Below the pieces are notes generated by a model. The model had not been told where the DNA came from. It did not search any database and saw nothing but the letters and a program-made list of their open reading frames with translations. A stretch of 64,000 nucleotides of DNA from Rhodovulum marinum (GTDB lineage: Bacteria > Pseudomonadota > Alphaproteobacteria > Rhodobacterales > Rhodobacteraceae): positions 14,923-78,922 of the forward strand of contig NZ_SLXP01000010.1 in the NCBI RefSeq assembly GCF_004343075.1. Direction: 5' to 3'. The position numbers and the translations under genes are program-made. Within the stretch, counting starts at the first letter, position 1. Every line of letters starts with the position of its first letter. Shown piece after piece: positions 46,436-50,882 of the stretch.

Positions 46436-47361
46436 CCGCGGCGCTTTGTTCCGCGCTTTTCATTGCCACACAGGCCGCGGCGGACGAGGCCGTTCACGTC
46501 GGCACGCTTGCGATTCCCAAGACGCAGACGACGCAAGGACTGTCGGGCATCGAGGTGTCGGCGGACGGGACGCAGGTTCTTGCGATCTCGGATGACGGCT
46601 GGTTCCTGCGCGGTCAGATCCAGCGCAGCGATGGTGCGCCGTCCGCGTTCTCGGTCGACCCGCCGCCGATCCGGATGCGAAGCCTGTCCGGCGACTGGAT
46701 GGCCGATCACCAGAAGGATGCCGAGGGACTGGCCATGGCGCCGGACGGTCGCGTTTTCGTATCGTTCGAGGTGTATCACCGCGTCCGGCTGTGGCGCGAC
46801 CTGCAGGCCCCTGCCATCTGGCTGCCCGACCGGCCCGAGAACGCCGGGTTTCAGCCCAACGGCGGGATGGAGGCCCTGGCCCTGGGTCCCGATGATGCGC
46901 TTTACGCCCTGCCGGAAACCATGGCCGCCGACGGCGGGATCCCGGTGTTTCGCTTTCAGGTGCCGCCGCAACGCCTGCGCCCGGACGGCACCCCGATCGA
47001 CCGCCATGTGGATATTCCCTGGACCGTTGCGTTCACCCTGCCCGCGCGCGGCCGGTTCCGCCCGGTGGGTGCCGATTTCGGGCCGGACGGGCGGTTTTAC
47101 CTGCTGGAACGTGGGGTGATCGTCCCGATCGGGTTCCGCAGTCGCGTGCGGCGCTTCGTTTTCGGCCCGGACGGCGCGACGAACGAAGAAACCCTTCTGG
47201 AAACCCCGGTTGGCCGTCACGGCAATCTCGAGGGGATTTCGGTCTGGCGGGATTCCACGGGAGAAATCCGCCTGACGATGATCACAGACGACAACGGCCT
47301 TGCGCTCCAGCGCAACGAGATCGTGGAATACCGAGTTGTCAGGACGCCTGCGGACCGCTAG
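46408..47361 (+). CDS. Exported phytase-type esterase-like protein
   Basis: About 317 aa if the GTG at 46408 is the start; this gives a proper signal peptide MPPRSGRRLTAALCSALFIATQAAA before DEAVHVG. No ATG lies close, and the ribosome site is weak, so the start is uncertain. The mature protein carries the esterase-like activity of phytase domain: TQGLSGIEVSADGTQVLAISDDGWFLRG, KDAEGLAMAPDGRVFVSFE, GMEALALGPDDALYALPE, GNLEGISVWRDSTGEIRLTMITDDN. This is a six-bladed propeller with acidic repeats. The predicted start lies within the last 28 bp of mepA. Substrate unknown. Confidence 0.8.
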   Translation: MPPRSGRRLTAALCSALFIATQAAADEAVHVGTLAIPKTQTTQGLSGIEVSADGTQVLAISDDGWFLRGQIQRSDGAPSAFSVDPPPIRMRSLSGDWMADHQKDAEGLAMAPDGRVFVSFEVYHRVRLWRDLQAPAIWLPDRPENAGFQPNGGMEALALGPDDALYALPETMAADGGIPVFRFQVPPQRLRPDGTPIDRHVDIPWTVAFTLPARGRFRPVGADFGPDGRFYLLERGVIVPIGFRSRVRRFVFGPDGATNEETLLETPVGRHGNLEGISVWRDSTGEIRLTMITDDNGLALQRNEIVEYRVVRTPADR

Positions 47362-47369
47362 AAAGCGCC

Positions 47370-47390
47370 GTCCGCCGCCGATCGGCGGAC
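47370..47390 (+). terminator. Hairpin between the phytase-like gene and yhhQ
   Basis: GTCCGCCG (47370-47377) / CGGCGGAC (47383-47390), loop CCGAT. It starts nine bases after the stop of the upstream gene and has no T run. It may be a weak terminator or a leader hairpin of the queuosine-precursor transporter. No preQ1 riboswitch pattern was seen. Confidence 0.4.
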
Positions 47391-47426
47391 CAAGTCTCCG
47401 CAACCTTGTAAAAACGGAAACCCGTC

Positions 47427-48047
47427 ATGACACGCCTGATCCCCGGCATCCTTGCCATGGCCGCCATCGTGGTGGCCTCGAATATCCTTGTGCAGTTCCT
47501 GTTCGGCCAATGGCTGACCTGGGGCGCCTTTACCTATCCGCTGGCCTTTCTCGTCACCGATGTGATGAACCGTGTCTACGGGCCGGGGCCCGCGCGCCGG
47601 GTGGTGTTCGCCGGCTTCGTCGTGGGCGTGGCCTGTTCGTTCATCGGCACCCAGATCACGGGCGAGTTCGGCCCGCTGGTCACCTGGCGCATCGCGCTGG
47701 GCTCGGGGCTGGCCTTCCTGACCGCGCAACTTCTGGACGTGGCCGTGTTCGACCGGCTGCGCCAGGGGCGCTGGTGGCGCGCGCCGCTGGCCTCGACGCT
47801 GATCGGGTCGACCGTCGATACCGCGCTGTTCTTCACCATTGCCTTTTCGGGTACGCTTGCCTTCATCGAATCGGGCAATGACGTCTCCTGGGCGAATGAA
47901 GCTCTGCCCCTTCTGGGGCTTGGGCCGGTCGTGCCGCTCTGGGTTTCGCTGGCCGTGGCGGACTGGAGTGTAAAACTTGCCCTCGCCTTGATCGCGCTGG
48001 TTCCGTTCCGCCTTATTGTTGGGCGGCTCACGGCACAGGTTGCGTGA
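47427..48047 (+). CDS. yhhQ: Queuosine precursor transporter (YhhQ/DUF165)
   Basis: 206-residue membrane protein with five to six hydrophobic segments. AFTYPLAFLVTDVMNRVYGPGPARRVVFAGF is the DUF165 signature (YP-x-x-F-x-x-x-D-x-x-N/xE-x-YG). STLIGSTVDTALFFTIAFSG and VADWSVKLALALIALVPFR follow. Takes up queuosine precursors (preQ0/preQ1) for tRNA modification. Monocistronic or downstream of the phytase-like gene with a hairpin in between. Confidence 0.93.
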   Translation: MTRLIPGILAMAAIVVASNILVQFLFGQWLTWGAFTYPLAFLVTDVMNRVYGPGPARRVVFAGFVVGVACSFIGTQITGEFGPLVTWRIALGSGLAFLTAQLLDVAVFDRLRQGRWWRAPLASTLIGSTVDTALFFTIAFSGTLAFIESGNDVSWANEALPLLGLGPVVPLWVSLAVADWSVKLALALIALVPFRLIVGRLTAQVA

Positions 48048-48099
48048 TTTAACTGGACATACACCAAATCTGTGGCACGCTACCCCTGACGGCAACAGC

Positions 48100-48267
48100 A
48101 GAAAGGAGGTGGTCCAGTGTCTAGAGTGATATTGGAGAACGAGGTTGGAACAGTCGGGAGGGCCGTGGTCTGAGGGCAGCCCCAAGGACCGAACACTTCC
48201 GATTGGGCCTTTCGCTCTAACCGGCCCATCTCCGTAGCTCTCGGGGCCGCCTTTCACCGGGCGGCCC
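48100..48267 (+). ncRNA. Structured short transcript candidate with 16S-tail complement and terminator
   Basis: Between yhhQ and arfB. AGAAAGGAGGTGGTCCAG (48100-48117) pairs over 18 nt with the standard alphaproteobacterial 16S rRNA 3' end, with one G.U position; normal ribosome sites span 5-9 nt. It is followed by an 18-codon ORF (48117-48173), a hairpin GCCC(C)AA/TTGGGC (48179-48208) and a terminator-like hairpin GGGCCGCC/GGCGGCCC (48244-48267) with TTTCC behind. This looks like one short RNA with its own end. I do not recognise the family. No strong promoter was assigned upstream; the region 48048-48099 is the AT-richest near here. Confidence 0.6.
48117..48173 (+). CDS. Predicted 18-residue peptide MSRVILENEVGTVGRAVV
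   Basis: GTG start at 48117, seven bases after GGAGG, TGA at 48171. The peptide is small, neutral and unlike a signal or toxin sequence. It is supported by the extreme ribosome-site match only, so it could be a leader peptide, a 30S-binding decoy, or a real microprotein. It ends before the downstream hairpins. Confidence 0.5.
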   Translation: MSRVILENEVGTVGRAVV

Positions 48268-48275
48268 TTTCCATT
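48244..48275 (+). terminator. Terminator of the short transcript upstream of arfB
   Basis: GGGCCGCC (48244-48251) / GGCGGCCC (48260-48267), loop of eight, followed by TTTCCATTT. It separates the short transcript from arfB. Confidence 0.7.
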
Positions 48276-48302
48276 TCCGGGCGCCTGGCCCACCATGGCC
48301 CC

Positions 48303-48725
48303 ATGCTACGCATCACCGACGAAATCGCGATCGAGGACTGGGAACTGACCGAGGTGTTTTCCCGGTCGTCCGGCCCCGGCGGTCAGAACGTCAACAAGGT
48401 CTCGACGGCGGTGGACCTGCGCTTCGAGGCGGCGCGCTCGCCCAACTTGCCCGATGCCGTCAAGGCGCGGCTGAAGCGGCTGGCGGGGCGGCGCTGGACC
48501 GAAAGCGGCGCCGTGCTGATCCGGGTCGAGGACACCCGCAGCCAGGCCCGCAACCGCGAGATCGCCCGCGAAAGGCTGGCCGAGTTGATCCGAAAGGCGC
48601 TGGAAAAGCCGAAACGGCGCGTGCCGACGCGACCGACGCTTGGCGCGAAGAAACGGCGGATCAAGGCCAAGAAGGAACGCGGCGAGATCAAGAGCCTGCG
48701 CGGCCGCGTCGCGCCCGAGGACTGA
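48303..48725 (+). CDS. arfB: Alternative ribosome-rescue factor ArfB (YaeJ)
   Basis: 140 aa: GGQ at 26-28 in RSSGPGGQNVNKVSTAVDLRF, the release-factor catalytic motif, and a basic C-terminal tail (KKRRIKAKKERGEIKSLRGR) that enters the mRNA channel of stalled ribosomes. No codon-recognition domain, as expected. Frees peptidyl-tRNA from ribosomes that ran off broken mRNA. Starts 27 bp after the terminator of the short transcript. Confidence 0.95.
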   Translation: MLRITDEIAIEDWELTEVFSRSSGPGGQNVNKVSTAVDLRFEAARSPNLPDAVKARLKRLAGRRWTESGAVLIRVEDTRSQARNREIARERLAELIRKALEKPKRRVPTRPTLGAKKRRIKAKKERGEIKSLRGRVAPED

Positions 48726-48758
48726 GCGTATCCGGGGCGGATGTCCCGCGCTTGCCGG

Positions 48759-48840
48759 GTTTCGCCTTGCTTGCGCAAGGCGACCCGCGCGGGGGGCGCT
48801 GCCCCCCGCGCCCCCCGGAGTATTTCACCCAAGAAAAAGA
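48759..48840 (+). repeat. Two-hairpin intergenic repeat, copy B
   Basis: Starts 34 bp after the arfB stop. First hairpin TCGCCTTGC (48762-48770) / GCAAGGCGA (48775-48783), loop TTGC, a perfect 9-bp stem. Second hairpin GCGCGGGGGGC (48787-48797) / GCCCCCCGCGC (48801-48811), loop GCT. Tail CCCCCCGGAGTATTTCACCC then AAGAAAAAG. It has the same layout as copy A (72-152) with compensating stem changes (CTGGGGGGC there). It lies between convergent arfB and serB. Confidence 0.75.
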
Positions 48841-48895
48841 GCCGGCCGAGGCCGAAGCTTTACTCCTGTCGGAGGACAGCCCCGCGCGCCGGCCG

Positions 48896-49765
48896 TCAGG
48901 CGGCGAAATCCGCGCGCGCATAGCCCTGCAGGTAAAGCAGGGCCGTCAGATCGCCGTGGTTGATCCGCAGGTCGCATTCGGCGGCCACCGCCGGCTTGGC
49001 GTGCAGGGCGACGCCCGCGCCGGCCAGGCCGAGCATGCCCAGATCGTTCGCCCCGTCGCCCACTGCCATCGCCTCGGCCGGGGAAATGCCCAGCCGCGCC
49101 GACACCGCCTTGAGGGCCGCGACCTTGGCCTCGCGCCCCAGGATCGGTTCGGCCACCTCTCCGGTCAGCCGCCCGTCCTGGACCAGCAGGGTATTGGCCT
49201 GGTGGTCATCGAACCCCAGATCGGCGGCCACACGGGCCGCGAAATTGGTGAACCCGCCCGAGACCAGGACGCAATGACCGCCATGGGCCTTCATGGTCGC
49301 GATCAACTCGCGGCCGCCGGGGGTATAGGTGATCCGGGTCGAAAGCACCCTGTCGATCACGCCCGCATCGAGCCCGGCCAAGAGCGCCACCCGTTCGCGC
49401 AGCGCCCCTTCGAAATCCAGTTCGCCGTTCATCGCGCGGGCCGTGATCTCGGCCACGCGCGGACCGATCCCGGCCTCGGCGGCCAGTTCGTCGATGCATT
49501 CCTGCCCGATCATCGTCGAATCCATGTCGGCGATCAGCAGCCGCTTGCGCCGCCCCTTGGCGGGCTGGATCGCGAGATCGACACATTCACCCTGCAAGTC
49601 GGCCCAGACCGACCAGATATTTCCCGGCACCGAATCAACCGGGAACTCGGCCGCAAGGTCCGGCGCAAGCCAGGTCGCCGTGCCGCCGCCCCAGGCATTG
49701 CGCAGCGCCTCGACAAGGGCGGGACGCAGCCCGCCGGGTGGCGCGATCAGGGTGACGACATGCAT
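48896..49765 (-). CDS. serB: Phosphoserine phosphatase
   Basis: 289 aa from ATG 49765 (GGAG eight bases upstream). An N-terminal ACT-like region of about 70 residues precedes LLIADMDSTMIGQE with Asp80 and Asp82 (HAD nucleophile and acid). VLVSGGFTNFAARVA and AVGDGANDLGMLGLAGAGVAL complete the HAD motifs. Last step of serine synthesis. Divergent from the CPBP protease gene, and close to serC-serA. Confidence 0.95.
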   Translation of the reverse strand: MHVVTLIAPPGGLRPALVEALRNAWGGGTATWLAPDLAAEFPVDSVPGNIWSVWADLQGECVDLAIQPAKGRRKRLLIADMDSTMIGQECIDELAAEAGIGPRVAEITARAMNGELDFEGALRERVALLAGLDAGVIDRVLSTRITYTPGGRELIATMKAHGGHCVLVSGGFTNFAARVAADLGFDDHQANTLLVQDGRLTGEVAEPILGREAKVAALKAVSARLGISPAEAMAVGDGANDLGMLGLAGAGVALHAKPAVAAECDLRINHGDLTALLYLQGYARADFAA

Positions 49766-50799: not shown

Positions 50800-50882
50800 T
50801 GCGCGGGGCCCGGAACGGGCGTAAGCGCGGCGGTGGGACACCCCTCCCCAACGAGGGGCGAATATCTGGAAGGATACCAGCA
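50800..50882 (+). ncRNA. Candidate serC-motif leader RNA
   Basis: Upstream of serC in an alphaproteobacterium, where a conserved serC RNA motif is known. The region contains CCCCTC (50841-50846) / GAGGGG (50853-50858), loop CCCAAC, preceded by a smaller GGTG/CACC hairpin (50832-50842, sharing two bases with the next stem). A short TATC/GATA pair (50863-50876) can enclose part of the ribosome site GGAAG. Assigned by position and hairpin shape; the exact consensus was not checked. Confidence 0.5.

What the first reader, a model, noticed from the sequence alone, without database searches (positions are those of the whole stretch)
48100..48173. 18-nt near-perfect complement of the 16S rRNA 3' tail placed on the start codon of an 18-codon ORF
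AGAAAGGAGGTGGTCCAG is what one expects from the reverse complement of the alphaproteobacterial 16S end (…CUGGAUCACCUCCUUUCU), with one A-to-G change that still allows G.U pairing. Normal Shine-Dalgarno contacts cover 5-9 nt, and here the start codon base itself is inside the match. With a tiny ORF, two hairpins and its own terminator, this looks like a short RNA that captures 30S subunits or regulates initiation; it lies next to arfB, a ribosome-rescue gene. Function is inference; the match is direct.
Basis: partly seen in the sequence, partly recalled or inferred. Interest (0 to 1): 0.78.

Follow-up and report, generated by a model that had tools for sequence, protein, structure and literature searches.

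The report
Ribosome-tail-matching small RNA with mini-gene
The window holds one copy of a widespread alphaproteobacterial small RNA whose tiny reading frame is preceded by a ribosome-binding site matching almost the whole free end of ribosomal RNA, and in this bacterial family that site is predicted to be folded shut by a copy of the ribosomal sequence inside the same RNA.

Summary
The 18-nt match is real (48100-48117; 0.02 matches expected at up to 3 mismatches) and leads into an 18-codon ORF (48117-48173). It marks what looks like a separate RNA gene: weak predicted promoter, ~185-nt RNA, intrinsic terminator. It is a distant relative of Rfam CC2171 (RF01867, function unknown): 34.3 bits over the full model, below the gathering score of 75. 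RF01867 matches 160 of 198 family and 85 of 385 class genomes; the core motif is in 51 of 86 Alphaproteobacteria and 0 of 213 other Pseudomonadota. The conserved part is 15 nt, GAAAGGAGGTGRTCC, complementary to the 16S tail; the start-codon base in the match is incidental. The ORF is maintained, but peptides differ between orders and pN/pS is about 1. In this family the site is predicted shut by an internal 16S-tail mimic (48226-48233) and a start-codon hairpin; other lineages lack that lock. arfB is a neighbour in 80 of 92 family loci, 0 of 71 others. Best model: an RNA whose small ORF is gated by 16S-tail pairing. Gating and 30S capture are untested.

The parts
48054..48059 (+). -35-like hexamer TGGACA (inferred, weak)
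   Evidence: In 106 related 18-codon loci TTGAC occurs upstream in 69, in 64 of them starting 49-46 nt before GAAAGG, against 20 of 106 in a control stretch 400 nt upstream; but the best overall promoter score (7.7 of 12) barely exceeds that of shuffled sequence (7.4). Window hexamer placed by analogy. No TSS data.
48076..48081 (+). -10-like hexamer CACGCT (inferred), 16-nt spacer
   Evidence: TTGACx to TGTGNCA spacing puts the CA of the -10 at 16 nt in 48 of 49 loci that have both motifs. The sigma-70 consensus scan of 47000-49500 found no promoter.
48088..48272 (+). Predicted RNA, about 185 nt (5' end inferred at roughly 48088)
   Evidence: CC2171 full-length model match, L001:1544-1719 = window 48093-48268; MFE -85.7 kcal/mol, z -3.04
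48101..48115 (+). Super Shine-Dalgarno GAAAGGAGGTGGTCC, complementary to the 16S 3' tail GGAUCACCUCCUUUC
   Evidence: 141 of 159 non-redundant loci pair at all 15 positions (G-U allowed)
48117..48173 (+). sORF, 18 codons (GTG...TGA), MSRVILENEVGTVGRAVV
   Evidence: 18 codons in 89 of 92 family loci; start and stop codons interchange
48114..48121 (+). 5' arm of start-codon hairpin (CCAGTGTC, holds the GTG)
   Evidence: 92.5% of the helix's cells paired in 78 sequences
48128..48135 (+). 3' arm of start-codon hairpin (GATATTGG, inside the sORF)
48105..48112 (+). SD segment GGAGGTGG, paired in the predicted fold with the internal anti-SD
   Evidence: 97.6% of the helix's cells paired (7 columns)
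48225..48233 (+). Internal anti-SD (16S-tail mimic) CCCATCTCC; 48226-48233 pairs with 48105-48112
48166..48191 (+). Hairpin over the stop codon
   Evidence: MFE fold
48243..48268 (+). Intrinsic terminator hairpin followed by a T-rich stretch
   Evidence: covarying pairs in the 106-sequence alignment
48303..48725 (+). arfB (neighbour, not part of the RNA)
   Evidence: PF00472, E 2e-21
47427..48047 (+). yhhQ-type transporter (neighbour, not part of the RNA)
   Evidence: PF02592 Vut_1, E 8e-30

Best explanation
48054-48272 is a separate gene for a roughly 185-nt RNA, the branch of the CC2171 RNA family found in this bacterial family (taken to be Rhodobacteraceae from named loci of the same type). 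It carries a maintained 18-codon ORF whose initiation site is a 15-nt complement of the mature 16S tail. Working model: the RNA folds so that GGAGGUGG pairs with an internal 16S-tail mimic (CCAUCUCC) and the start codon sits in an 8-bp hairpin. The unpaired GAAA at the 5' side acts as a toehold, and the 16S tail of a free 30S subunit displaces the internal anti-SD and opens the site. Initiation then exposes the 3' segment with its anti-SD motif and changes the fate or activity of the RNA. The RNA would thus be a translation-gated small RNA, with the act of initiation mattering more than the peptide. Shown by sequence: family relationship, conservation, ORF maintenance, complementarity. Predicted: promoter, structure, energetics. 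Inferred only: toehold displacement, gating and any downstream effect.
For: Family: RF01867 matches the window over model positions 1-159 (34.3 bits; E 5.7e-4, 2.1e-5 for one genome); 160 of 198 family and 85 of 385 class genomes at E<=0.001, 13 of the 385 over the cut-off. Core motif in 157 of 198 family genomes, in 51 of 86 Alphaproteobacteria and 0 of 213 other Pseudomonadota. 16S pairing: AAGGAGGTG invariant in 159 of 159; of 80 changes in the 15-nt core, 61 (A>G 52, C>T 9) keep pairing with 16S and 19 do not. ORF: starts GTG/ATG/TTG 116/38/5, stops TGA/TAG/TAA 87/41/31. Selection on RNA: crude pN/pS 0.98 over 297 close pairs; codon 3 Arg is AGA in 92 of 92, codon 12 Thr is ACA in 99 of 100. 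Lock: 94.9% of 1169 cells paired against 41-53% when slid; SD pairing probability 0.94 against 0.69 shuffled in 40 RNAs of this type; SD base A/G goes with C/T in the internal anti-SD (A-C 42, G-T 21, A-T 6, G-C 4, other 5 of 78). Energetics: duplex with the 16S tail about -29 kcal/mol against -10.1 for AAGGAGG; opening costs 10.2 on average, 13.8 for the window.
Against: Window score is below the Rfam gathering score, as in all 198 family genomes; 38 of the 198 have no match at E<=0.001. The lock is not universal: in the MSHC, MSS and MSHG groups the SD is less paired than in shuffles (0.61 against 0.73, 0.63 against 0.72, 0.59 against 0.68), so gating by an internal anti-SD cannot be the function of the whole family. 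The lock helices lack compensatory support: the SD side hardly varies, so dealing the 3' letters anew leaves 94.7% of cells paired, and the two-sided measures are reached by 50-63 of 500 shuffles. Substitution counts are not independent, the elements were anchored on the motif itself, and the loci read were mostly the better-scoring matches. The consensus promoter scan found nothing. Caulobacter ribosome profiling reported its intergenic ncRNAs, in general terms, as not translated (PMC4117421, passages). No transcript or translation data for this locus.
Confidence: 0.5

Rival explanations
1. Simple small mRNA: the super-SD drives production of a functional micropeptide; RNA structure is secondary.
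For: ORF maintained with interchanging start and stop codons; 18 codons in 89 of 92 family loci; peptides recognisable within lineages (MSR..LE.GVGT; MSHCH..; KRCHLAG).
Against: pN/pS 0.98; the most conserved residues keep one codon, as expected from RNA pairing; peptides unrelated between orders, lengths 14 to 59 codons.
Confidence: 0.2
2. Trans-acting base-pairing sRNA: the CCCACCUCC segment (anti-SD) or the conserved CUAACCGG stretch pairs with target mRNAs; the ORF is accessory.
For: Typed as sRNA in Rfam; terminator and likely own promoter; conserved CUAACC segment before the anti-SD. Other alphaproteobacterial sRNAs with CCUCCUCCC anti-SD loops are described (PMC3927594, passages).
Against: An exact CCTCC after the ORF is present in 59 of 110 18-codon RNAs and seldom in other groups; it does not account for the conserved start codon and open frame.
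Confidence: 0.15
3. 30S decoy: the 16S-complementary RNA binds 30S subunits stoichiometrically and titrates initiation.
For: Predicted duplex of about -29 kcal/mol with the 16S tail, far above an ordinary SD.
Against: Initiation-competent ORF kept rather than lost; would need high abundance, which is unknown; in this family the site is predicted shut.
Confidence: 0.1
4. Leader peptide or attenuator controlling arfB.
For: arfB lies downstream in 80 of 92 family loci; terminator between ORF and arfB.
Against: 0 of 71 class loci have arfB in the stretch read; in 12 of 92 family loci the element is present and arfB was not detected, though at least one of those stretches ends within 500 nt of the element; no other widely shared neighbour outside the family (largest cluster 11 of 129 loci).
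Confidence: 0.05

Closest known systems
Rfam RF01867 CC2171 (Caulobacter sRNA)
   Same: Full-length model match; same super-SD, start codon, short ORF and terminator layout; graded scores connect the groups.
   Different: Score below gathering; ORF 18 codons, against 21-26 in the loci over the cut-off; the long-range helix is SD:anti-SD rather than codons 2-5 (UCAUUGU):ACAAUGGA. Rfam types it as an sRNA gene.
Extended SD motifs of Staphylococcus aureus (PMC13009471; passages)
   Same: mRNA pairing with the 16S tail reaching towards the start codon; found at sORFs including leader peptides.
   Different: There a feature of many genes (about 30% of initiation sites, as the passage states); here usually one locus a genome, complementary to nearly the whole tail.
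rnTrpL / peTrpL of Sinorhizobium meliloti (PMC10117765 passages; PMC7298713 search listing with start of abstract)
   Same: Alphaproteobacterial small RNA carrying a translated micro-ORF (dual-function RNA).
   Different: Leaderless, a trp attenuator; no super-SD.
Anti-SD sRNAs of Rhizobiales (SmelA075/SmelA099; PMC3927594 passages)
   Same: CCUCC anti-SD motif in a structured small RNA.
   Different: Several loop copies; no super-SD or sORF mentioned in the passages seen.

Membership tests
Rfam RF01867 CC2171 | Bit score at or above gathering (75) | tested here: not met
   Window 34.3 bits; 0 of 198 family genomes over the cut-off
Rfam RF01867 CC2171 | End-to-end match to the 159-position model | tested here: met
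   Model 1-159 in the window
Rfam RF01867 CC2171 | Continuity through intermediate sequences | tested here: met
   Matches from 91.1 to 27.1 bits in 85 of 385 class genomes
Rfam RF01867 CC2171 | Closing helix of codons 2-5 (UCAUUGU) with pre-terminator ACAAUGGA | tested here: not met
   319 of 329 cells (97%) in 47 MSHC RNAs, 18-69% when slid. The window lacks these bases; the analogous UAGAG:CUCUA pairing reaches 237 of 390 cells (61%) against 39-44% slid
30S-titrating decoy RNA | Stoichiometric binding of 30S in vivo | not testable with these tools
   Only predicted duplex energy
arfB attenuator | Constant position upstream of arfB | tested here: not met
   80 of 92 family loci; 0 of 71 class loci
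Translated sORF | Open frame with interchangeable start and stop codons | tested here: met
   frames 1 and 2 have stops in 53 and 54 of 106, frame 0 in none, but the set was chosen for 18-codon length
Translated sORF | Ribosome occupancy or peptide detected | not tested
   No such data were read for this locus or its orthologues

The most novel reading that the evidence does not exclude
The RNA is a sensor of free 30S subunits (or of mature 16S 3' ends): an internal copy of the 16S tail competes with the real tail for a maximal SD, so sORF initiation reads out spare initiation capacity and sets whether the RNA's 3' anti-SD segment is free to act on other mRNAs. This SD:anti-SD lock would have arisen separately in the window's family (anti-SD after the ORF) and in Bradyrhizobium-type genomes (anti-SD inside the ORF, encoding RCHL).
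Probability: 0.2. Interest if true: 0.88.

Novelty: new variant of a known kind. Interest (0 to 1): 0.62.

Why it matters
A class-wide RNA family filed as an sRNA appears to be built around an SD longer than any conserved one I can recall, in bacteria where SDs can be a minority (24.6% of Caulobacter coding sequences have one; PMC4117421, passages). It gives a natural system for asking what full-tail SD pairing does, and whether RNAs can sense free ribosomal subunits.

Tried and rejected
arfB leader: rejected on distribution. 16S gene fragment: rejected; the scan of the window at gathering thresholds finds no rRNA, and after the shared bases the 16S end reads on as CCGCAGG while the locus reads on as start codon and ORF. 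Loop pseudoknot UAGAG:CUCUA in this family: 61% of 390 cells, not claimed. SD sequestration as a family-wide feature: rejected for the MSHC, MSS and MSHG groups. A common neighbour gene outside the family: none widely shared. The peptide core KRCHLAG in the literature: 0 papers. Identity with S. meliloti SEP1 (23 aa, highest translation efficiency among the non-annotated sORFs; PMC10117765 passages): six of 15 loci, perhaps Rhizobiaceae, carry a 23-codon ORF, but the paper's pI of 4.18 does not seem to fit that peptide (judged by eye) and the SEP1 sequence was not read; left open. Caulobacter CCNA_R0051 (209 nt, own promoter, 4.4-fold up with mitomycin C; PMC6237742 passages; listed under G1 in PMC5988900 passages) may be CC2171 by gene numbering; that offset is recalled and unverified. 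Function of CC2171 in print: searches for CC2171, RF01867 and CCNA_R0051 and topic searches showed me no paper describing its ORF or function; the original Caulobacter sRNA paper is not held, so what it says is unknown to me.

Full report
Observation. The window has AGAAAGGAGGTGGTCCAG at 48100-48117, whose last base opens an 18-codon ORF, GTG 48117 to TGA 48173. Against AGAAAGGAGGTGATCCAG it has one mismatch; at up to three mismatches the window has two matches, against a mean of 0.02 in shuffles. The tail of this genome was not seen: RF00177 finds no match in it, and a 271-base 16S query found nothing in 26 genomes, 15 of the same genus, in a search without a positive control.

Conservation. 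A 253-base query matches 22 of 41 genomes, among them all 15 same-genus genomes. The loci in G028 and G031, from other families, led to Rfam: L022 reaches 81.7 bits for RF01867 CC2171, over the gathering score of 75. With a permissive threshold all eight loci tested match CC2171 end to end, the window with 34.3 bits, E 5.7e-4, and so do all 18 further loci of varied types at E<=0.05. RF01867 gives 160 of 198 family genomes (0 over the cut-off) and 85 of 385 class genomes, a sample that includes the own genome and four of its family (13 over the cut-off). Among 14 named control genomes only Caulobacter vibrioides rings. A pattern at up to two mismatches gives 157 of 198 family genomes, with no match to the reversed control. 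In a phylum sample a shorter pattern gives 51 of 299 genomes: 51 of the 86 Alphaproteobacteria, 0 of the other 213; the reversed control gives one match. The window's family is unnamed in the tools; I take it to be Rhodobacteraceae because named loci with the same 18-codon type are of that group (placement recalled).

What is conserved. In 163 of 164 loci read, the motif is followed by a start codon. Among 159 non-redundant loci found by CM or BLAST, AAGGAGGTG is invariant and 141 pair at all 15 positions of GAAAGGAGGTGATCC with the 16S tail. Of 80 changes in the core, 61 (A>G, C>T) keep pairing and 19 do not. The loci were anchored on this motif and are related by descent, so these counts are descriptive. 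Codon 2 is Ser in 154 of 159. Lengths are 18 codons in 89 of 92 family loci, mostly 20-36 elsewhere, 14 in Bradyrhizobium and Rhodopseudomonas (KRCHLAG core), and 55-59 with a signal-like N-terminus in L155 and three Azospirillum loci. Two of those longer peptides were scanned and match no Pfam family.

Peptide or RNA? In 106 ORFs of the window's type, frame 0 has no stop by choice of the set, while frames 1 and 2 have stops in 53 and 54. A crude pN/pS between close pairs is 0.98. Conserved residues are tied to single codons: AGA at codon 3 (92 of 92 Arg), TTG at codon 6 (91 of 97 Leu), ACA at codon 12 (99 of 100 Thr). The frame is kept, but the letters look constrained as RNA.

Structure. The window RNA folds with z -3.04. 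GGAGGUGG 48105-48112 pairs with CCAUCUCC 48226-48233, and CCAGUGUC 48114-48121, which holds the start codon, pairs with GAUAUUGG 48128-48135; GAAA 48101-48104 is unpaired. RNAalifold on 106 sequences returns six pairs of the first helix, five of the second and a covarying terminator. On 78 aligned sequences 94.9% of 1169 cells are paired, against 41-53% with the partner slid. Dealing the 3' letters anew leaves 94.7%, and two-sided changes (2 pairs) are reached by 50 of 500 shuffles, because the SD side hardly varies: there is one-sided, wobble-compatible support but no compensatory proof. SD base A/G goes with C/T in the internal anti-SD (A-C 42, G-T 21, others 15 of 78), which may reflect clade history. 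SD pairing probability is 0.94 against 0.69 for shuffles in 40 RNAs of the window's type and 0.89 against 0.76 in 13 Bradyrhizobium-type RNAs, where the anti-SD lies inside the ORF. It is below shuffles in the MSHC (40), MSS (27) and MSHG (4) groups. In 47 MSHC RNAs codons 2-5 pair with ACAAUGGA before the terminator (319 of 329 cells; 18-69% slid). So the super-SD is common to the groups, while the SD lock is lineage-specific.

Energetics. The 16S duplex is about -29 kcal/mol, against -10.1 for AAGGAGG. Opening the site costs 10.2 on average in the window's type, 13.8 in the window, 9.6 in the Bradyrhizobium type and 6.2 in the rest. An ordinary SD would break even at best; the long one has a wide margin. 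These are nearest-neighbour estimates outside the ribosome.

Gene unit and context. TTGAC starts 49-46 nt before GAAAGG in 64 of 106 relatives, with constant spacing to a -10-like element, but overall consensus scores barely exceed shuffles (7.7 against 7.4). The window's own hexamers are weak (TGGACA/CACGCT), and the consensus scan found no promoter. The element lies between a Vut_1 transporter gene and arfB. arfB is near in 80 of 92 family loci and 0 of 71 class loci. Outside the family no neighbour is widely shared (largest cluster 11 of 129).

Literature. CC2171 appears in the passages seen only as a family with an improved structure in Rfam 15 (PMC11701678) and in a Mesorhizobium prediction table (PMC5596092). 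I found no function. A Caulobacter study states in general terms that its intergenic ncRNAs are not translated, which counts against translation if it includes CC2171 (PMC4117421 passages).

Verdict. A widely conserved RNA gene and a distant CC2171 relative. The most likely mode of action is an RNA whose small ORF is initiated through full 16S-tail pairing, with an added internal 16S-tail mimic in this family. Regulation of arfB is not supported, and capture of 30S subunits is untested.

Noticed in passing
50831-50882 (+): serC leader RNA (RF00517), 73.9 bits, before a phosphoserine-aminotransferase-like ORF (function recalled, not searched).
   Followed up: no
   Followed up: partly
L163, L214, L220, L224, L225, L239, L248, L250, L264, L265 and others: Bradyrhizobium/Rhodopseudomonas-type 14-codon ORF with the core KRCHLAG, whose codons CUGUCACCUC themselves form the anti-SD for the super-SD.
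   Followed up: partly
window 48215-48224 and relatives (A1 columns 174-184): CUAACCGG just before the internal anti-SD is strongly conserved in the window's type without a well-supported pairing partner.
   Followed up: partly
G036, G251, G371, G455, G482, G489; G190, G196: Some genomes have two or three RF01867 matches at E<=0.001. In G036 the two encode different peptides (L102, L182); for the second match of G489 (L186) no element was found.
   Followed up: partly
L112 1526-1455 (-): Weak match to Rfam BASRCII26 (30.1 bits, gathering 218) overlapping the CC2171 match.
   Followed up: no
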